From Micropterix aruncella (lineage: Eukaryota; Arthropoda; Insecta; Lepidoptera; Micropterigidae), in NCBI GenBank assembly GCA_944548615.1, contig OX155951.1:42375320-42439319 (forward strand): a stretch of DNA of 64,000 bases, in the 5' to 3' direction. Shown one piece after another: positions 40,101-63,200 of this stretch. The position numbers and the translations under genes were made by a program. A model generated the notes under the pieces. That model made no database searches. It was given only the letters and a program-made list of their open reading frames with translations, and was not told the DNA's origin. Numbering within the stretch: position 1 is the stretch's first letter; every line of letters begins with the position of its first letter.

Positions 40101-43100
40101 GTGTCTGCTGTTGACCGTTGAGGAGTTGTCTCGTCGGGAGCCAACCCTGGGTGGACGGATTTCAACCACAATCTGTTCAGCTCATGCCGTGAGCAAATGA
40201 TGCCTGCATGCCAAATTTCAGCTCAATCGGATGAAGCGTTTCGGCGCTATCGTCGGAGAATACACACAGACCTACAGCAGACACACACACGTGCGTCCAT
40301 AATACTGTCCTTGACGGGAAAGTAAAAAACCGACTACATTTTTTTAAATAAATGCAGCAGCCACGGCGATACTTAAACGGGCTATCGCAATACGTATACA
40401 AAATTTTGTGTCTGTGCCGTTGACCGTTGAGGAGTTCCCTCGTTGGAAGACAACCCTGGGCGCTGCAGTCCTGTCTCGGTGAAACTTAGAACGGGCTGTC
40501 GTATTGAATGAATACAACATGGCTGATGTACCCTGGGTTGGATCCCGACGAGGGAACTCCTCAACGGTCGGCAGCAGACACAAAATTCAAAAAATCGAAA
40601 AAGTAAAAAGGTCGGAAAAGTAGATTTTGATTTCGATTTTCGATGGTTAACCCATTTTGGCCCGGTACCAGATTCCGTTTGAATTTTTAGTTGAATTTTG
40701 GAACCTAGGTTAATTTAGGGCTAATCAAGAAAATTCCGTTGAAATTTTCCGGCTATCTCATACGGTTTTCCCGATAAGACAGGGGTATTTTATGACCCCT
40801 TGGGCCAATACATATAAATAAATGAAATACATAGTTTTATTGAACAAGAAGAGAAATGTTTATTAGAAAGCAATATTAGTGCATTATTTTTACAAAATGT
40901 TTATTTGAGAACATTATTTATGCATGAAATATTTATCAAAACATTTTGGATGCAAATTAACATCGCATTTGATACAAATAAAGGGAGTTATAAATAGGAT
41001 AGAAAACGAATTTACCGCGTGAAATTTGTAGGACCCGACGTTTCGGTGACGTTGCAGCCGCCGTTGTCAAGGGTAAACTGAAGAGGCTGCTGTCAGTCCG
41101 TTGTTTTGCGGGTAGGCCGCAAACCGCTGCCGCCACTGCGTAGGTTATAACGGTGGTGGGGGGCCGGGCTCGGAGCGCGGGAATTTTTAAAATCCGTCTT
41201 GCACACAACACTCACTGTATCCTGTTTTACGTCTTTGCGTTCGGCGTTCGGCGGCGGGAACATTTTAAGAAGAGGGTTCCACGTAGAAGAGAGTTTGTAG
41301 CCGTCATCTCTATTGAAGTTCGGAGTTCTTCTTATTTCAATGGCTTCCCGGATCATGCGAGGAAAGTAGAATTGTTCCTTCGATAGAACAATGGGATTTT
41401 GAAACTGCATCCAGTGGTTACTTCCGCTATCCAATATATGTTCGCAGATCGCCGATTTTTCTCGCTGAACGTTTTTAACAGCTTTGATGTGTTCTGTCAG
41501 TCGCGTGGCTATGGGCCGTTTCGTTTGTCCAACGTAGGCTAGACCGCAGCTGCATTCGACTTTATACACACCCGGGGTTTGCAGTGGTATTACATCCTTT
41601 ACAGGCCTCAAAAATCGAGCTATATTTTGGGTCGGTTTGGAGATCGTTTTTATATCGAATCTGTTTAGCATCTTACTTATTCGATCTGTCACGCCCTTGA
41701 CGTATGGTAAGAATGCTCTTGATCTGCTCGGTTTTTGAGTTTCGTCCGTATTAGATCGTGTGCGTGTCTCGTGATATTTTCCGTATCCATTTTTCCTAAG
41801 GACATCATTGACATGTTCCATCTCCTTCGGAAAATGCTCAGTGTCGCATAGATCGCGTGCTCGATTCACGAGCGACGTTTGCACTGAACGTAGATGGTAG
41901 GGATGATGGTGTGAGCTTGCATGCAAATATCTGTCCGTATGTGTGGGCTTCCGATATACCGTATGTCCGAGAGTATTGTCACTTCTCCTCGTCACTTTGA
42001 CATCCAAAAATGGTAAGGAGCCGTCCTTCTCTACTTCATAGGTGAAACTGATTTTTGGGTGTATGGAGTTTAGATGACCCAGGAATTCTTTCACCGTTTG
42101 AATGTTGCCTTTCAGGATGCAGAAGGTATCATCCACGTAGCGAAGCCAGAGAATGGGTTTAATTTTGGAGGTTTTTATGGCTAATTCCTCAAAATATTCC
42201 ATATATAGGTCACTAACTATCGGCGATACGGGGCATCCCATTGCTACTCCGTCGATTTGTTTGTAATAATCGCCGTTCCATAGAAAGTAGCAGGATGTCA
42301 GGCAATGTTGAAGCATGTCGGCGTAGCTAATAGGGAGGTCCTCAGACCTTAGTTTATCTCTCACCACCGTAAGACACTCCGAAATGGGCAAATTCGTAAA
42401 TAAAGATTCGACGTCAAAGCTCACCATTATTTCGTCTTCGGCCAGTTTTAAGCTTCTAATAATGCTTACGAAATGTCGCGAGTCTTTCACGTAAGACGTC
42501 GTTTTGCCCGTAAGCGGTTGGAGGACACCAGCCAAGTGTTTTGACAGAGGATATGTGGGGCTGTCGATTTGGCTCACAATCGGTCTCAATGGTGCATTAT
42601 CCTTATGGATTTTAGGTAAGCCATATAATTTCGGTGGCTGTACGTTACGTGGTTTAGTGAGATAAGCTATTTCTGGGAGGGAAGTGACAGATTTATCGAT
42701 TAAAACTCTCGTTTGCCTGGTAATTCTGCTCGTGGGATTGTAATTCACCTTCTCGTAAGTGTTGGCGTCTTCTAAGAGCGTCCCAATTTTCCGCTCGTAG
42801 TCCACAGTATCGAGTATCACGGTTGCGTTGCCTTTATCGGCCCGCAACACAACTACGTCCTTATTATCCCGCAGAGATTTTAAGCTTTTTCTCTGGGCGG
42901 CTGTGGTGTTCGACTGTGGGAGCTTGGCCTTGCGTACAAAGACAGCCACATCCTGTCGCAGTAAGTCGGCCTCTGGCGCAGGGATCTTGTTACGAGAGAT
43001 GACTTCTTCAATGCCACCGATAATACTTTCCACAGGCAAACGGTTCGGTGTCGGTACATAATTTAATCCCCTGCTAAGAATTTCTGTCGTCGGCTGGTCA

Positions 43101-46100
43101 ATGTCAATTTTCGAAAGATTAATGACAGTACTTACAGCGTATTTCGGTACCTCCTTGCGGGAATGCCCTGCGTTTGCCAGGCGCAGAAACTTGGCATTAT
43201 GCGACTCCTCACATAGCACCGTGGTACGTTCCGATTGGCTGAAGGAAACTCTGTCGTAACATATCCTCTGTCAAAACACTTGGCTGGTGTCCTCCAACCG
43301 CTTACGGGCAAAACGACGTCTTACGTGAAAGACTCGCGACATTTCGTAAGCATTATTAGAAGCTTAAAACTGGCCGAAGACGAAATAATGGTGAGCTTTG
43401 ACGTCGAATCTTTATTTACGAATTTGCCCATTTCGGAGTGTCTTACGGTGGTGAGAGATAAACTAAGGTCTGAGGACCTCCCTATTAGCTACGCCGACAT
43501 GCTTCAACATTGCCTGACATCCTGCTACTTTCTATGGAACGGCGATTATTACAAACAAATCGACGGAGTAGCAATGGGATGCCCCGTATCGCCGATAGTT
43601 AGTGACCTATATATGGAATATTTTGAGGAATTAGCCATAAAAACCTCCAAAATTAAACCCATTCTCTGGCTTCGCTACGTGGATGATACCTTCTGCATCC
43701 TGAAAGGCAACATTCAAACGGTGAAAGAATTCCTGGGTCATCTAAACTCCATACACCCAAAAATCAGTTTCACCTATGAAGTAGAGAAGGACGGCTCCTT
43801 ACCATTTTTGGATGTCAAAGTGACGAGGAGAAGTGACAATACTCTCGGACATACGGTATATCGGAAGCCCACACATACGGACAGATATTTGCATGCAAGC
43901 TCACACCATCATCCCTACCATCTACGTTCAGTGCAAACGTCGCTCGTGAATCGAGCACGCGATCTATGCGACACTGAGCATTTTCCGAAGGAGATGGAAC
44001 ATGTCAATGATGTCCTTAGGAAAAATGGATACGGAAAATATCACGAGACACGCACACGATCTAATACGGACGAAACTCAAAAACCGAGCAGATCAAGAGC
44101 ATTCTTACCATACGTCAAGGGCGTGACAGATCGAATAAGTAAGATGCTAAACAGATTCGATATAAAAACGATCTTCAAACCGACCCAAAATATAGCTCGA
44201 TTTTTGAGGCCTGTAAAGGATGTAATACCACTGCAAACCCCGGGTGTGTATAAAGTCGAATGCAGCTGCGGTCTAGCCTACGTTGGACAAACGAAACGGC
44301 CCATAGCCACGCGACTGACAGAACACATCAAAGCTGTTAAAAACGTTCAGCGAGAAAAATCGGCGATCTGCGAACATATATTGGATAGCGGAAGTAACCA
44401 CTGGATGCAGTTTCAAAATCCCATTGTTCTATCGAAGGAACAATTCTACTTTCCTCGCATGATCCGGGAAGCCATTGAAATAAGAAGAACTCCGAACTTC
44501 AATAGAGATGACGGCTACAAACTCTCTTCTACGTGGAACCCTCTTCTTAAAATGTTCCCGCCGCCGAACGCCGAACGCAAAGACGTAAAACAGGATACAG
44601 TGAGTGTTGTGTGCAAGACGGATTTTAAAAATTCCCGCGCTCCGAGCCCGGCCCCCCACCACCGTTATAACCTACGCAGTGGCGGCAGCGGTTTGCGGCC
44701 TACCCGCAAAACAACGGACTGACAGCAGCCTCTTCAGTTTACCCTTGACAACGGCGGCTGCAACGTCACCGAAACGTCGGGTCCTACAAATTTCACGCGG
44801 TAAATTCGTTTTCTATCCTATTTATAATGTCAAACAACCGCGATAGTCTTCGATTTCATAAATAAAGGGAGTTTTGGTTTTTTTACAAAATTTGCATCGA
44901 CGTGGTGGAATGCCCTTCTCGCTTTGACTCGGAAAATGGCGTGATGCATTCTGATTGGGTAATTGTGGTGGCACTATTGAAGCAGGAACATCATCGATAG
45001 CAGGCTTGTCCACCGATAAAAGAGCTTGAGTTACTTCGGATCGAAATTTCAGTTAGGACATCGGTTTATTCACCTCGCTTTGTGCCACCAAGCAATGCAA
45101 CTTCCAGGCATTTACCACCATGTTCGAGAGCGTATATGTTAAAAGTGGCCACCACCATTTTTTGCTGCGGATTCCAATACGATAATTCCCCAAGGCGTTG
45201 TCGTGGAGTTCGACGCCTCCCATGCCTTGATTGTATTCCTTGATCATTCGGGGAACATTGATTGATGTTTACATATTTCTTTTGAGTGCGATCATAACGC
45301 TGTGCTGTGGCGAGCGGCTCCACAAACGATTGATTAGATAACATCGCATTATCTCTCCACCGGACCACAAAGAGCTTCTTTTCCGCCTAATATAATGTTT
45401 TACACTCTCCTTATTTGAGTTTATCGGGCAACTTGGCTCCATCGATGCGGGTTACTCGAACTGTTCCTATTGAAAAAAATCGACTATCGCTTAGAAGGCA
45501 CATGAGGTGAAACGAAGTGGAAAAGTTGTCGAAAGAAATCCGATGAGCGGAGGGCGATGAAACGTTCTCCAACAACTTGAGTACAACATCAGGCATCGAG
45601 GCATTGCACCGCGCACAATTGGGATACACAGGCCCGGTTCAAGCGACCAATAGAGAATCAAGAAAAAGGCTGAACAATTTTGCTGGCGATTTTCCAGCTA
45701 ATTGCCTTGCGATGCCCTCGATTTGGTTTGCGTCAATGTCCTTGGAATATTGAAAGACACGCTTCCGCCAAGTTGTACGACCGTATTCGGCCAGAGATTT
45801 GATTTTTTTCGACGCCTGCATTGGTTCATCCTCCTCATACTCTTCCGATCCGTAGCCAGCCGTGTCCGCCGCCGCCGTATCATATTCTATTTAGACCATA
45901 CCAGCAACATCCATAGCAAGCGCAGCATCGCCTTTAATAATCTCGTCGTTTATTGTTTCCTGGTCGCTTGCCTCATCTACGTCCGGTGGCACGTACACCA
46001 CATTCACATCGGCTGAGCGATGCACTGCAGTCGTCACCTCATCCTCTTCATCAGATGATTGTTGTAATATCGTCATAATTTCATCGATTGTGATCGCCTT

Positions 46101-56089: not shown

Positions 56090-57010
56090 ATGGCTGTTAC
56101 GAAAATATGTTGTATTTTATTGAAACCTGCTCTCGAAACACTTATTCCTATATTTGAAGAGGGATCTCGTGCAGACATCAATACTAATTATAATTATTAT
56201 CACATTTTGCCATTTTTTAAAAAAACTAGTGAATTACCAGACATTGCTGACATACTCATAAAAAGACATTGCTGAGTCTCGATAACGCTAGAAAAACAGT
56301 TGTTCTCAAACAAATTTTATGTGATCTCTTTAAGGTTTTTGATTGCATTGAACATTCAATTTTTTTTCTGAAACTACAACACTATGGAATCAGGAGTGAG
56401 GGAATATTGCTAATAGAATCGTATTTTCAAAGTGTCACCTAATATATGCAAGTCGGCAACAGCAAGAGCGCGGACAGTATCCAACATTTTTGTGAAAATT
56501 GGGAGCTTTGCATATTAGGAGTAACTTTCTGCAAGTACTAATTTTTATTACCTGCCAAAAATCCTTTAGCGAGTCAGAGATCTAGAGGTTGGGAAAATAT
56601 AGTAACTGCATTTTTCATTGCACTTTCTAATGAAAAACTAAATATATGTTGATTTCTAAGGAAGGACAAAGTAAATGTATGTTGGTTACTTCCATGTTAG
56701 TCCGAAAAGATCGAACCGTTTTACCTGTGCAGTGTTTTCATCTGTTTTTGGTTCTCTTTTAAAATTTGATTTAAAAAAGATATTGTGAATTCCGTAGAGC
56801 AGCCGAGTACCTCTCAATATGTTTCCAAAGGTGTCCCTCAGGGATCGATATTTAGCTTTTTTTTTCCTCGACGACATTGTAAATCATCATTACCATTACG
56901 TATATAAATCATCATTATCATTACATGCTAAAAATCTCTACTAAATAAGTGGGAAGGTATATTTCCCACTTATTTAAAGAGAGCGATTAAAAGGCCACTT
57001 TTTAAAAAAG
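56090..57010 (+). mobile_element. Decayed LINE RT downstream of tsl
   Basis: LFKVFDCIEHSIFFLKLQHY then GIRSEGILLIESYFQ (about 56320-56440) and KGVPQGSIFSF (about 56830) are RT motifs in several frames. LKRPLFKKGDSRNPSNYRP near 56975-57040 is a separate RT N-terminal scrap at the edge of the SINE-like repeat. Confidence 0.7.
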
Positions 57011-57018
57011 GGGATAGT

Positions 57019-57150
57019 AGGAACCCCTCAAACTACCGTCCGATTGAAGAGAAGAAAAAACGAAAAAAATATGAGTCCTGACTAGGTATCGAACCCGGGT
57101 ACCCTGGCCTGTAATACAGTGTTTTTACCCCTCGGCCATTTGGCGTTTTT
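57019..57150 (-). repeat. SINE-like repeat with Pol III boxes, uninterrupted copy
   Basis: On the - strand TGGCCGAGGGG matches the A box and GGTTCGATACC the B box of a tRNA-type Pol III promoter, about 35 nt apart. The unit, beginning GGAACCCCTCAAACTACCG on the + strand, is repeated immediately at 57151. It gives the empty-site sequence for the 4.0-kb transposon. Confidence 0.6.
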
Positions 57151-57247
57151 TGGAACCCCTCAAACTACCGTCCGATTAAAGAGAAGAAAAAACGAAAAAA
57201 ATGAGTCCTGACTAGGTATCGAACCCGGGTACCCTGGCCTGTAATAC
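57151..57247 (-). repeat. SINE-like repeat, half copy left of the transposon
   Basis: Tandem duplicate of 57019-57150 up to GGCCTGTAATAC, where the 4.0-kb transposon begins. The other half resumes at 61262. Confidence 0.65.
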
Positions 57248-57608
57248 TAGTCGCCTATCAAATGTACATCCGTGTGCTCCTTCAGTATGCAAGTGTGGAA
57301 GTAGTCTTAATCTCTTCGTTTGACCATGGAGAAACATAATTTTGATGGTGGCACTCTCAAAAATGGTGCGTTTGGGCGCTGCGGGCCAAAAACAAAATGG
57401 CCGCCATCAAAAACATGTTTTCCTATTTATATCAGTAACCGTTGAAGATACGAAAAATGTTGTTGAATAAAAAATGTAGCCTGACAGATTGTGCATAGAA
57501 AAGGTCCTTACAACTTTCTTTGTATAACTAACCGTTTTCTCAAAAAAATTACTTTTGTAAAAAGAAATATTAGGAAATGAAAAAATCGAAGTTTTAGGGT
57601 TTTGCAAG
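57248..57608. repeat. Left TIR of the 4.0-kb transposon
   Basis: It pairs with 60885-61261 in inverted orientation, from the terminal TAGTC to TTTTAGGGTTTTGCAAG. It lacks about ten bases present near the outer part of the right arm. It contains AAAATGGCCGCCATC at 57394-57408, a self-complementary site of YY1/Pho type. Confidence 0.85.
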
Positions 57609-57848
57609 CACATATTTAAAGTTTTTGAAATTTTTTACATGTTTCTTGATTTATTACAATAATAACTGTATTAAACTTTAATAAATTAACAAATATACCA
57701 TTTTTATATTTTTTTTTATGTAGGAATTGGAAAGAGGAAAGAGACATTTCTTGAAAAGCTCTAATTTGTAATAACAATACTGTTGAAGAAATACAATATT
57801 ACATTTGTTAAATTTTCAAATACAATCAATATCACTGTCAATGCCAAT

Positions 57849-60800
57849 TTAACTTAAACCTAGATCTTCATCATTGTCTTCCTCGCATTCTCCCGTATTG
57901 TCGCAATGGTCAGGATCACCTTCGCACTTGCACATTTCAGTACACCGGAGTCCATTTGACTGACACGTACATGGAGGACAGCAACGTCTTTTTGAGCATG
58001 AGCAGCGGCAAAGCTCCAAGATAAGCTTTGGTGCACAGGGGTTGGTACAAGCAACAGGCTCGTATGCACTACCTATTTTCTGCCATCCAAAATCTGAGGG
58101 TGACGGGTTATTAGGATGCTGAATTAGGTCCTGATTCCACTCAAAACATTGAAGGTGAGCCCGTAGCAATGCTGGATTTAGTGCTGATTTTGTTGGAGGA
58201 AGGTTCTCATCTTGATGTTGTTTTTTAGTAAACAAGAACCATCGCACTGCTCCTATGTCTGTCAATGATGTTTTGGGGATGTATAGCTGACAAATGAGTG
58301 CTTCCAAGTTAGCCCTCACATATTCAGTGAGTAACAGTGTTGTCCCCAATTTAGCCAAAGCTTCTATCATCGTATCACTTGCTGAATTAAAAGCTTTCCA
58401 CCACTTTATTTTTCCTTTGCCAGCAAATGACCCTGTTACATCAGCTCCTGAAAGTGCATGTAGTCCAGGGAGTGCAGAGGCTTTCAGAGGTCCAAGTGCT
58501 CTGTAAATTGACCCTATCTGAACAAACCTTTTCATACCATGTCCAAGATAGAAAGAAAAATCTTTAGAAAGTTGTGGATATCGCCTTAGTGCTAGAATAA
58601 GGACGTCAGTATCAGGGGAGAACACGTGAGTAGTTTTAATTCCTTTCTGTGCTAAATAAGCTGCATGTAATATAATCTTTGTGTCGGCCTCCTCTTGCGT
58701 GCTTGAAAGACAGGATACATCATCCCCATGTGATGACGCTGCCTTGTCCCTCCAACTGAGTACGAACTTCTTGTTGTTGGTCTCACCGAATTTGAGTATT
58801 TGACTGGAAAGGAACTCGGTTAGTTCGTCTTTCGTCTTATCATGGGCCAATAGTTTGTGCATTGGTATGCTTTCAATTTTTGTTTCTGGCCTGACTTTGT
58901 ATTGGATTGGATCAGAGCCTTTTTGCCGTATGTCTCGCATCGCTTTCTTCAATAAGTTTTCTTTGTACGAGTCAAAAACTATATGTACCTCACTATAGTT
59001 ATTGAATTTTTGTCCGATCCATTGGCTGAATTTCACACCGAGGTCATTACATGTCTTCACTGTTGTAGGTTTGTGGTAGGTATGAAGAAGTGCCATGCCA
59101 TCTACTATTACAGCTTTTCCATGTAGCTCGTCATTATGTACTGGAACATCATGAGCTGTAGACGTATTATCATCTTCGTTTTCTTCAGCAGGTTTCTCTT
59201 GGATTGATTCTAGAGCATCTGTAAGTTTGTACTTAGCCAGACAATGGTGCATACTCCCGTCAATTGCAAACAACGACTTTGGTAGTGCTGAAAACTCGTA
59301 GTTGCTTAAATTGTGCCTCAAATCTATGTCAGGTCTGCTTCTGGAAGCTATCAACAATCTTGAAATGAGAGATAAGTCTGTCTTAATGGCAACGGTTTTG
59401 TCTTTGATGGTAATTTTAATCTTCTTAGCTACTGATTTACACGTTTTTATGACATTCTTTTTCATGGGAGCCCAGAACGTAATTGTGTTTGAACGAATTC
59501 GTTGATCTAAGAAAATATTATGGAGATTTTTACCAACTTCGGCAACACTGTCTAAAGACACTTTTACTTCTTGAGGAAAGACTCGCTGAGTGAGGATATG
59601 AATGAGGTCATCACTTTTATATTGGAAGGGATTTGTTGAGTTTTTAAATGCTTCCATTAGTGTAAGCACATTATCGCCCTGGCGCTGTTGGAGTTTTACT
59701 GACACTTCGTGATGTTGACTTCGTACTGTACTTTTTAATCCAATCATTTTCTCAGTTTCACATGCAATTCTAGTTAGTTCCGAATTAGCAAGGAAGAATC
59801 GATTTCGAGCATTCTCATTGAGTGTTTTACCCACAAGTCCTCCATGTACCTTTAGTTTTCGATTTTGGTGTTCCAGAGCCTCATCCGCACTTAGAGAACA
59901 AAATGGTACTTTACTTCTGTTCACTACCCAATTACCTTCCATAAACTGTTTCCAGATTTCTGGATCTGTTGATTCCAAGTTTTCCATCTCTGAAAGATAT
60001 AAGGTGATCATTCTAGCATAGTTAAGTCTATTAAATGTAAAGAAGTATTTAACAAACTCGTGGACGGATGCTAAATACAGTTTCCAATCAGATGTTCTTA
60101 CAGCTCTTATGAAATTCATCATTAATTGCACCATATCCATATACGTGCAAGCTAGTTTGAAAACAGGATGCTTTTGCTTTTTTGTTGCTGAAAAGTTTTC
60201 AATATTTTGAATAATCTTTCTTTCTTGTAGGGAAGAAACTATTGTGGAATTTACCCTTTTCAGCTCTTTTTTATCACTAGTTGTTAATGTTTCTACTAGT
60301 TCTTGGAGATGAGGCTTCAAACAGTCTAGCTGCCCTGGAAATTCTTTTTGAAATTCTTCTAAGAGTAGGTTAGTTAGTGTAGAGGCAGTAGATATATGAG
60401 CTTCAATTCCTCTTCTGATGTGTTTACCGTCTAGGATTTGTTTCATTGTTGCTGCTGAATATAATCCACATTCAACCCACAATTCAGGTATACCTGAACC
60501 TTCAATGAGCTCTCCTATTGTCCGGAGCTGAGCAATTATGATATGTAGCTCACAAGGCTTCAGAAGCCATCCCTCCTTATATTCATTTACAGCCATTTCC
60601 AGCTGTTTTATTGGTTTGTAAAGAGCCATGTCAACTGTGACAACTACCTTTTTCTTAGTGGCTTCTACATCGGGACTTGTATAGTGGACTGAACTATTTA
60701 GTTTCTCCAGTTGTTTCATCACAGTAAGCTGCACTGATTGATTAGTTGGTGACTCTGGGATCATAGCTAGCATGGTAACTCTTGACACAGGCTTCTGCTG

Positions 60801-60863
60801 ATCTATCAAGAGGCTGTTATAGCCAGCCCAAGTTGGAAAATGTGTAGTAGGCTTCTCGTTCAT
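57849..60863 (-). CDS. 1004-aa transposon protein with FEN1/XPG-like nuclease pattern and Cys-rich C-terminus
   Basis: An uninterrupted reading frame with an in-frame TGA seven codons before the ATG, which supports this start unless there is upstream splicing. Residues 1-570 are mostly helical-looking and match no catalytic domain I can name. Residues 584-815 carry acidic motifs in the order and spacing of PIN/FEN1/XPG nucleases: VDGM (D588), VFDSY (D631), QEEAD (E725, D727), SPDTDV (D751, D753) and SGAD (D808) followed by GKGK. Residues 952-993 hold twelve cysteines in CxC and CxxC arrangements resembling a CXC/tesmin-type or Cys8 zinc-binding domain, probably DNA binding. The protein probably cuts or joins the element's ends in the nucleus. 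It is not a host gene: it lacks introns and is enclosed by TIRs and a target duplication. Confidence 0.82.
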   Translation of the reverse strand: MNEKPTTHFPTWAGYNSLLIDQQKPVSRVTMLAMIPESPTNQSVQLTVMKQLEKLNSSVHYTSPDVEATKKKVVVTVDMALYKPIKQLEMAVNEYKEGWLLKPCELHIIIAQLRTIGELIEGSGIPELWVECGLYSAATMKQILDGKHIRRGIEAHISTASTLTNLLLEEFQKEFPGQLDCLKPHLQELVETLTTSDKKELKRVNSTIVSSLQERKIIQNIENFSATKKQKHPVFKLACTYMDMVQLMMNFIRAVRTSDWKLYLASVHEFVKYFFTFNRLNYARMITLYLSEMENLESTDPEIWKQFMEGNWVVNRSKVPFCSLSADEALEHQNRKLKVHGGLVGKTLNENARNRFFLANSELTRIACETEKMIGLKSTVRSQHHEVSVKLQQRQGDNVLTLMEAFKNSTNPFQYKSDDLIHILTQRVFPQEVKVSLDSVAEVGKNLHNIFLDQRIRSNTITFWAPMKKNVIKTCKSVAKKIKITIKDKTVAIKTDLSLISRLLIASRSRPDIDLRHNLSNYEFSALPKSLFAIDGSMHHCLAKYKLTDALESIQEKPAEENEDDNTSTAHDVPVHNDELHGKAVIVDGMALLHTYHKPTTVKTCNDLGVKFSQWIGQKFNNYSEVHIVFDSYKENLLKKAMRDIRQKGSDPIQYKVRPETKIESIPMHKLLAHDKTKDELTEFLSSQILKFGETNNKKFVLSWRDKAASSHGDDVSCLSSTQEEADTKIILHAAYLAQKGIKTTHVFSPDTDVLILALRRYPQLSKDFSFYLGHGMKRFVQIGSIYRALGPLKASALPGLHALSGADVTGSFAGKGKIKWWKAFNSASDTMIEALAKLGTTLLLTEYVRANLEALICQLYIPKTSLTDIGAVRWFLFTKKQHQDENLPPTKSALNPALLRAHLQCFEWNQDLIQHPNNPSPSDFGWQKIGSAYEPVACTNPCAPKLILELCRCSCSKRRCCPPCTCQSNGLRCTEMCKCEGDPDHCDNTGECEEDNDEDLGLS

Positions 60864-60884
60864 TGGCGTACATATGATTATTCA

Positions 60885-61261
60885 CTTGCAAAACCCTAAA
60901 ATTTATATTTTTTGATTATTCTTTTTACAAAAGTAATTTTTTTGAGACAACGGTTAGTTATACAAAGAAAGTTGTAAGGACCTTTTCTATGTATAATTTG
61001 TGTAGCTACATTTTTTGTAAAAAACATTTTTTCGTATCTTCTCGTTTCATCTCTCAACGGTTACTGATATAAATAGGAAAACGTGTTTTTGATGGCGGCC
61101 ATTTTGTTTTTGGCCCGCAGCGCCCAAACGCACCATTTTTGAGAGTGCCACCATCAAAATTATGTTTCTACATGGTCAAACGAAGAGATTAAGACTACTT
61201 CCACACTTGCATACTGAAGGAGCACACGGGAGCCTATATTTGTACATTTGAAAGGGGACTA
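60885..61261. repeat. Right TIR of the 4.0-kb transposon
   Basis: Inverted partner of 57248-57608. Its inner edge lies 21 bp upstream of the ATG on the - strand, so the TIR probably supplies the promoter. The YY1-like palindrome is repeated at 61091-61105. Confidence 0.85.
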
Positions 61262-61620
61262 TACAGTGTTTTTACCCCTCGGCCATTTGGCGTTTTTCTA
61301 TATCGGCAGAGAAGTTCTATATATGTTTTGTCAGATATTTTGTCTATATATCTGGTGCAACCTTATGAAACCACCGGTAGGTTCTGGCATGAAATTTGAA
61401 TTTTCAAATTTGAGGGTAAGTCAGGTCATGTCAGGTCCGGCTCGGCATCGCTCGGCCCCGCTCGTCCACGCTCGTCTCCTATCGGCCCCGCTCGGCCCCG
61501 CTCGGCCCCGCTCGACACCGGTACTAAAATTTTAATTTTTCGATGAAAAAAAAAACTAAAATAGAGAGAGCTAAAATAATGTGTTTTTCGAAATGGTAAT
61601 ACTATTTTAGTAATATCAAG
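61262..61620 (-). repeat. SINE-like repeat, second half, with GC minisatellite
   Basis: It begins TACAGTGTTTTTACCCCTCGG, the continuation of the split copy, followed by the family's flanking block (TCGGCAGAGAAGTTC, CTGGTGCAACCTTATGA). Between 61438 and 61515 it includes a short tandem run of CTCGGCCCCG-like decamers. Confidence 0.55.
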
Positions 61621-61860
61621 AGAAGAAAAAACGAAAAAAAATGAGACCTGACTAGGTATCGAACCCAGGTACCCTGGCCTGTAAAACCGTGTTTTTACCC
61701 CTCGGCCATTTGGCGTTTTTTCTATATCGGCAGAGAAGTCCTATATATGTTTTGTCAGATATTTTTTCTATATTTCTGGTGCAACCTTATGAAACCACCG
61801 GTCGGATCTGGTATGAAATTTGAAATTTCAAATTTGACAGTTTCATTTTAATTTTTTATT
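61621..61860 (-). repeat. SINE-like repeat copy
   Basis: It carries the same A/B box head on the - strand, with a slightly altered B-box region (GAACCCAGGTACC on the + strand), and the same downstream block ending near AATTTGAC. It is followed by AT-rich sequence with a T-tract at about 62008-62028 and no gene to 62330. Confidence 0.6.
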
Positions 61861-62329
61861 TTATAAAATTATCGAATACAATACAATTGATTTTGCGAAG
61901 CAGATAAGATTACATTTGTGTGGATTTTATCACCCCACTAGATTATATATCTGTTCTGGGGTGATAGTATTTAAGACTTCACTTTAATCATAGTGACTTC
62001 ACTTTCTTTTTTCTTTTTTTTTTTTTTTCTTATTCATTCCGATTGCTAATTCATTCTTATAAATTTTAAGGTTAATATAAATATATAAATGTGTATATAA
62101 ATTAAGAACTAATATTAAATAATGAAAATGATAATATTTAAATTTATAGATGAGTAAAATAAATAAATATATAGATTAATATATAACTAAATTGACCAAT
62201 AAATTAAGTAGCCTATAAAGGTTTCTTACTATGCACATATAAAATTGTGAATTTAATTAATTAATATAAAATTATATTTTTTTTTTAAACATAATCAACC
62301 GAAACATATTTCTTATCAAGTATCAGGTG

Positions 62330-63200
62330 ACAGATATGGACAGAAGTTTGATCCCTCAAATTATCGACCGATATCAGCACCTGATGTTTTAGCAAAAATT
62401 TTGGAAAAAATAGTAATTACACAAATCTGTAATCATCTAGAAACCAATCACATGTCATCCGAAAACCAATACGGCTTCAGATCCAAAATGGGAACACAAG
62501 ATGCAGTACTAAAAATGTCGGAGCATATCACTAGGTATGTAGACGCCAACAAAAAGTGTATTACTGTACTTCCTGACCCCTCTCAAGCCCCCGACACAGT
62601 ATCCCACGAAATGCTCCTAATGAAACTTGGGAAATATGGTATTACAGGTATCGAACTAAACTGGTTTCGCAGCTGTATTGGATCCCGAAAACAGCGTACT
62701 ATTACTGGGTGAATCGCCTGCCCGGGCAGGCGATTCACCCAGTAAAAGTCTCCACAATAATCATGGGGTCCCACAAGGAAGCACTCCTGGACCGACTCCC
62801 CTCTCACTCTACACAAATGGGCTTTGTGAAATGGACGTTGGTGCAGATATACTATCCTACGCTGACGATACTGCCCTCATACTCGAATCGAATAGTTGGG
62901 AAAGTGCATACAACAAGGCAGCTGCCGCGATGAAAAGTGTCAAGGGCTGGCCTGACCACAATCTGTCAACGCCGAAACGTGGATAAAACTAAGCTTGTAG
63001 CCCTCAGCAAAGATGCTCGTCAGCAACCTCCACAAAATTATAACCTAGTCCTATACGAAAGCGACAGTCTTGATTGTAACTGTGCACAAATTGAGCATGT
63101 CCATTTTGTGAAGTACCTAGGTGTTCATGTCGATAAACATCTCCGGTGGCAAATACATATCGAAAAGGTCGCCGAAAAAGTCCGTTAACTAATATATATC
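62330..63200 (+). mobile_element. LINE RT fragment containing a perfect palindrome
   Basis: FDPSNYRPISAPDVLAKILE, HMSSENQYGFRSKMGTQDAV, then HNNHGVPQGSTPGPTPLSLY, ILSYADDTALILESN and VKYLGVHVDKHLRWQIHIEK follow the RT domain order. The catalytic pair appears intact (YADD). A frameshift coincides with the palindrome at 62702-62745, and another lies near 62980. Confidence 0.85.

What the first reader, a model, noticed from the sequence alone, without database searches (positions are those of the whole stretch)
57248..61261. Apparently intact 4-kb DNA transposon using an XPG/FEN1-like nuclease instead of a DDE transposase
Seen: TIRs of about 360-380 bp ending TAGTC..CC, a 3-bp TAC duplication, and one uninterrupted 1004-codon frame. 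An empty site is visible in the same window (57093-57150), which proves precise insertion. The only catalytic-looking pattern is D588, D631, E725/D727, D751/D753, D808, the order seen in FEN1/XPG/PIN nucleases, plus a 12-Cys C-terminus. From memory, the Academ superfamily has 3-4 bp duplications and an XPG-type nuclease. Its mechanism is essentially unknown, so an intact insect copy would be a valuable model; it could also be a new lineage.
Basis: partly seen in the sequence, partly recalled or inferred. Interest (0 to 1): 0.9.

Follow-up and report, generated by a model that had tools for sequence, protein, structure and literature searches.

The report
Shortened Academ-like transposon with nuclease frame
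This 4-kb stretch of jumping DNA, first read as a complete transposon that uses an unusual DNA-cutting enzyme in place of the normal transposase, is a shortened copy of a longer element that is likely of a known type (Academ): it has lost the part that carries the first active-site residue of the predicted main transposase, so it would depend on a longer copy to move.

Summary
The element spans 57248-61261, with 361/377-bp terminal inverted repeats, a TAC duplication and one 1,004-codon frame. Of 39 other short copies fetched, 36 had both ends readable; all 36 carry a 3-bp (35) or 4-bp (1) duplication. Residues 543-922 are predicted to adopt the FEN1/Exo1/XPG fold.

"Intact" and "instead of a DDE transposase" are not supported. 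Twenty full-length relatives (1,467-1,674 aa) carry some 480-680 further N-terminal residues with an invariant DNxD motif. With two acids kept in the window (D78, E331) it forms a likely DDE triad; a relative that keeps it is predicted, with moderate scores, to resemble P-element and Hermes transposases.

In the same genome two long copies hold this region, both broken; 0 of 37 short copies examined keep it, and the left end has 368 first-look candidates, 40 scored. Short-copy frames show no purifying selection; 2 of 37 are open for 1,000 codons.

A non-autonomous deletion derivative of a likely AcademX family, probably moved in trans. Known kind; low to moderate interest.

The parts
57245..57247 (.). 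target site duplication, left copy (TAC)
   Evidence: sequence
57248..61261 (.). whole element, 4,014 bp, internally deleted form
   Evidence: 39 further copies fetched
57248..57608 (+). left terminal inverted repeat, 361 bp, begins TAGTCGCC
57849..60863 (-). 1,004-codon frame: C-terminal two thirds or so of the family's protein; its first Met corresponds to an internal position of the longer protein (in L017 the frame continues upstream)
60630..60632 (-). codon of D78, second acid of the inferred DDE triad
59871..59873 (-). codon of E331, last acid of the inferred DDE triad
59730..60365 (-). match to Pfam DUF6589 (residues 167-378, E 8.2e-10)
58098..59237 (-). predicted FEN1/Exo1/XPG-fold nuclease domain, residues 543-922
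57903..58004 (-). C-terminal Cys-rich segment with eight invariant cysteines (residues about 954-987); weak Tesmin/TSO1 CXC similarity in some relatives
60861..60866 (.). deletion junction: here about 2.4 kb present in the long C33 copy (L048/L051) is missing
60885..61261 (-). right terminal inverted repeat, 377 bp, begins TAGTCCCC read inward
61262..61264 (.). target site duplication, right copy (TAC)
   Evidence: sequence
57020..57151 (.). related empty site: neighbouring copy of the target repeat without the insertion

Best explanation
This is a 4,014-bp internally deleted copy of a DNA transposon family that likely belongs to the AcademX lineage: its 1,004-codon frame keeps a predicted XPG/FEN-fold nuclease but lacks about 610 N-terminal residues of its closest full-length relative, among them the first aspartate of a predicted DDE transposase, so the copy was likely mobilised in trans by a longer element. 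Shown: the ends, a 3-4 bp duplication at 36 of 36 testable short copies, the deletion relative to a 6.4-kb copy in the same genome, short copies with several different deletion endpoints, and decay of their frames at the neutral ratio. Predicted: the FEN/Exo1 fold, and the RNase-H/DDE fold of the N-terminal plus middle part. Inferred: in the full-length protein the N-terminal zinc-finger-like region and the Cys-rich tail would bind DNA; the DDE domain would cut and join the transposon ends to a target with a 3-bp (rarely 4-bp) stagger; and the nuclease would trim the 5' strand or flap at the ends. The 4-kb forms would keep what is needed in cis, the inverted repeats.
Confidence: 0.87

Rival explanations
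1. One reading: an intact autonomous transposon whose XPG/FEN1-like nuclease replaces the DDE transposase.
For: The frame is open for 1,004 codons, the nuclease fold is well predicted with all acids, short copies differ from the window by 1.2% on average and have perfect duplications, and places with the N-terminal region are few while left ends are many.
Against: Full-length relatives carry about 480-680 more residues with an invariant DNxD motif, and the window keeps two acids of a likely DDE triad. Frames of the short copies decay at the neutral ratio; 2 of 37 are open for 1,000 codons or more. Several different N-terminal deletion endpoints occur, as expected for deletion derivatives.
Confidence: 0.04
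2. The truncated protein is kept as a regulator, such as a repressor that binds the ends through its Cys-rich tail and dampens the full-length transposase, as truncated P-element products do (comparison recalled).
For: The window and L012 retain open frames of 1,004 and 1,014 codons, and the Cys-rich tail is intact in the window.
Against: No excess of synonymous changes among variants shared by three or more copies, and 5 stops occur among them; 35 of 37 frames are shorter than 1,000 codons.
Confidence: 0.07
3. The family is not Academ but a separate lineage of DDE plus FEN-type nuclease transposons related to P or hAT elements.
For: The best fold match of the DDE part is the P element, with Hermes lower; no Academ reference sequence was compared.
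Against: P and hAT elements make 8-bp duplications (recalled), here 3-4 bp; 3-4 bp plus nuclease is what PMC10045372 states for AcademX; curated bivalve Academ elements average 5,565 bp, not far from the 6.4-kb long copy.
Confidence: 0.08

Closest known systems
AcademX lineage of the Academ superfamily (DNA transposons)
   Same: 3-4 bp duplications and an encoded nuclease (passage of PMC10045372); listed as a DDD/E superfamily (passages of PMC9587614 and PMC10294476); long protein with predicted XPG/FEN fold and a Cys-rich tail (that Academ has XPG and Cys8 domains is recalled)
   Different: The window copy is deleted: it lacks the N-terminal third or so of the protein and the first D of the inferred triad; no direct sequence comparison with a named Academ was possible
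FEN1/Exo1/XPG 5' nuclease family
   Different: 12-16% identity to the FEN1, Exo1 and XPG chains listed; embedded in a transposon protein; activity untested
P-element and hAT (Hermes) transposases
   Different: 3-4 bp rather than 8-bp duplications (8 bp recalled); nuclease and Cys-rich tail fused; window copy lacks the first D
Pfam DUF6589 (PF20231)
   Same: residues 167-378 match at E 8.2e-10; 11 of 21 aligned proteins match at E 0.1 or better
   Different: a family of unknown function; here it falls in the middle, mostly helical part, from after the second D to just past the E

Membership tests
AcademX (Academ superfamily) | target site duplications of 3 or 4 bp | tested here: met
   36 of 36 short copies with both ends (35 of 3 bp, 1 of 4 bp), plus the window; swapped-flank control 72 of 1,260. 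The long C33 copy shows none
AcademX (Academ superfamily) | encoded nuclease (XPG type, the type name recalled) | tested here: met
AcademX (Academ superfamily) | DDE transposase in the family (full-length members) | tested here: met
   D508, D688, E941 in all 20 full-length relatives and in the C33 long copy; predicted fold of P0042 nearest P element, moderate score
AcademX (Academ superfamily) | complete DDE triad in the window's own protein (needed to call this copy an autonomous member) | tested here: not met
   first D and about 610 N-terminal residues absent; so filed only as a non-autonomous derivative
AcademX (Academ superfamily) | sequence similarity to a named Academ reference | not testable with these tools
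   no Repbase; Kojima 2020 not held
P or hAT superfamily | 8-bp target site duplication (recalled) | tested here: not met
   3-4 bp in all 36
FEN1/XPG nucleases | 5' flap or structure-specific nuclease activity | not testable with these tools
   needs biochemistry

The most novel reading that the evidence does not exclude
The deleted 4-kb form still makes a working product: a FEN-type nuclease with a DNA-binding tail that, without a complete DDE site, takes part in or controls the movement of the many short copies, so that the nuclease half is a separable engine or brake of Academ transposition.
Probability: 0.06. Interest if true: 0.8.

Novelty: new member of a known kind. Interest (0 to 1): 0.3.

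Why it matters
It corrects a reading that would have been remarkable, a transposon driven by a FEN1-like nuclease alone, and shows what is there: a young-looking family with many deletion derivatives. It also offers a natural comparison of the Academ-like protein with and without its DDE half, useful for asking what the XPG-type nuclease adds to 3-bp-stagger transposition, which the read passages leave open.

Tried and rejected
Rejected: intact autonomous element (N-terminal part missing). Rejected: missing part supplied by another exon in the window (tblastn of the N-termini of P0001, P0002 and P0004: the only hit under E 0.5, P0004 residues 648-677 at E 0.007, lies inside the known frame). 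Considered and not supported: frame kept by selection. Considered: single-copy host gene; refuted by 40 near-identical left ends and 39 fetched copies. The target repeat looks tRNA-like to the eye, but Rfam (56500-62500) and ARAGORN (whole window) gave no hit.

Led nowhere: relatives in viral contigs (82 pattern stretches, none confirmed); sequence search of PDB with the window frame (2 matches up to E 10, REV1 and a photosystem chain) and with the family profile (0); papers on DUF6589 (0); Kojima 2020 by PMC id and DOI (not held). The VIA list for P0042 is dominated by winged-helix-like matches to residues 134-222; families missing from the lists are not excluded. In one search my script printed a wrong right end and length for the C33 copy (it found a later GACTA); the 6.4 kb given here comes from the alignment ends. 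A second, distant family (about 25% identity) was looked at in one locus, L052, whose downstream part reads N; left there.

Full report
What was checked. The element at 57248-61261 has ends TAGTCGCC...GGGGACTA and a TAC duplication. The inverted repeats are 361 and 377 bp, 334 of 352 ungapped aligned columns identical, and there is a single 1,004-aa frame on the minus strand. The neighbouring 132-bp repeat at 57020-57151 is identical to the joined flanks over about 80 bases around the insertion point, with one TAC, so it is a related empty site. The window lies at the end of contig C2 of a 1.08-Gb genome, so the host is taken to be a eukaryote; no call named it, and 'insect' was not tested.

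Mobility. The left 393 bp found 368 first-look candidates, of which 40 were scored, all full length at 99-100% identity; the other 328 were not looked at. The window is one of the 40; the other 39 were fetched. Both ends could be read in 36 (L011, L031 and L039 were dropped), and all 36 have a matching duplication: 35 of 3 bp and one of 4 bp (L025). Swapping flanks between copies gives 72 matches in 1,260 pairs. The 37 copies, window included, differ from the column majority by 0.8% on average, and the 36 from the window by 1.2%, which suggests a young family.

The deletion. The N-terminal residues of P0001 are not found elsewhere in the window. In the genome, (72 of 97 candidates scored) found two near-complete same-family places, C33 and C14, both with stops and C14 split by about 5 kb, some fragments, and a more distant family at about 25% identity. 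A 701-bp DNA piece of the region finds 5 places: C33, C14 and three of 81 bp. The C33 copy is about 6.4 kb, 98.5% identical to the window over the first 3,618 bp, then carries about 2.4 kb that the window lacks, then the right repeat at 94%. It keeps every triad and nuclease acid but has six stops in the aligned stretches, which are split in four and overlap by a few residues; it differs at the last base and shows no duplication. At the window's junction the two sides overlap by about five bases. L017 continues the window's frame upstream with residues homologous to P0001 584-613, so the window's Met lies at an internal position. 0 of 37 short copies keep 1.5 kb or more of the 2.45-kb missing region, and several different endpoints occur.

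Selection. 2 of 37 copies have a frame of 1,000 codons or more, the window and L012. Singletons are 200 N: 72 S: 14 stop, variants in exactly two copies 58: 11: 7, and variants in three or more copies 63: 18: 5. A neutral expectation with a transition weight of 3 is 0.695: 0.264: 0.041. There is no sign that the short form's protein mattered while it spread.

How it likely works (inferred). A full-length protein, made by a long copy, would bind the repeats, cut and join through the DDE domain with a 3-bp stagger, and use the FEN-type nuclease on the 5' strand. PMC10045372 (passage) says that the duplication lengths of AcademH and AcademX seem related to their different enzymes, helicase and nuclease. 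The 4-kb forms would be passengers. The two long copies seen are broken, so the source may be lost, unassembled or present in other individuals.

Literature. Only passages were read of PMC10045372, PMC10294476, PMC9143410, PMC9587614, PMC10799480, PMC3985635 (a reference line only), PMC6327564, PMC9783078 and PMC4455052. Kojima 2020 (AcademH) and Yuan and Wessler 2011 were not read; the former is not held. The labels XPG and Cys8 for Academ and the 8-bp duplications of P and hAT are recalled. Searches with XPG or DUF6589 terms listed 20 of 26, 0 of 0, 15 of 243 and 3 of 3 papers; none of those listed is, by title, about this family.

Verdict. Real and well observed, but a deletion derivative of a likely known kind of transposon rather than an intact nuclease-only transposon.

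Noticed in passing
41093-43219 (-) and 43235-44722 (+): Two reverse-transcriptase frames (Pfam RVT_1), likely Penelope-like, lie head to head as an inverted duplication with 1,569-bp arms 99.9% identical.
   Followed up: partly
57020-57151, 57152-57247 with 61262-61298, 61626-61721: A roughly 130-bp repeat unit in several copies, with a stretch that looks like a tRNA B box read on the minus strand, is the target of the insertion; no Rfam or ARAGORN hit.
   Followed up: partly
L052 (G000:C46:102600-109200) and several other places: A second, distant family (about 25% identical to the N-terminal part) with open N-terminal frames of about 637 aa at several places; L052 reads N downstream.
   Followed up: no
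L010, L013, L018, L019, L021: Five of the short copies share an insert of about 375 bp at the same element position (near 2,686), which suggests a subfamily that moved after gaining it.
   Followed up: no
C13:5631351, C23:18950729, C51:16712921: Three places join N-terminal residues 1-62 directly to 536-611 in an open frame: another deletion class, which keeps the N-terminal start but also lacks the DNxD motif. One (L050) was fetched and has a further internal deletion.
   Followed up: partly
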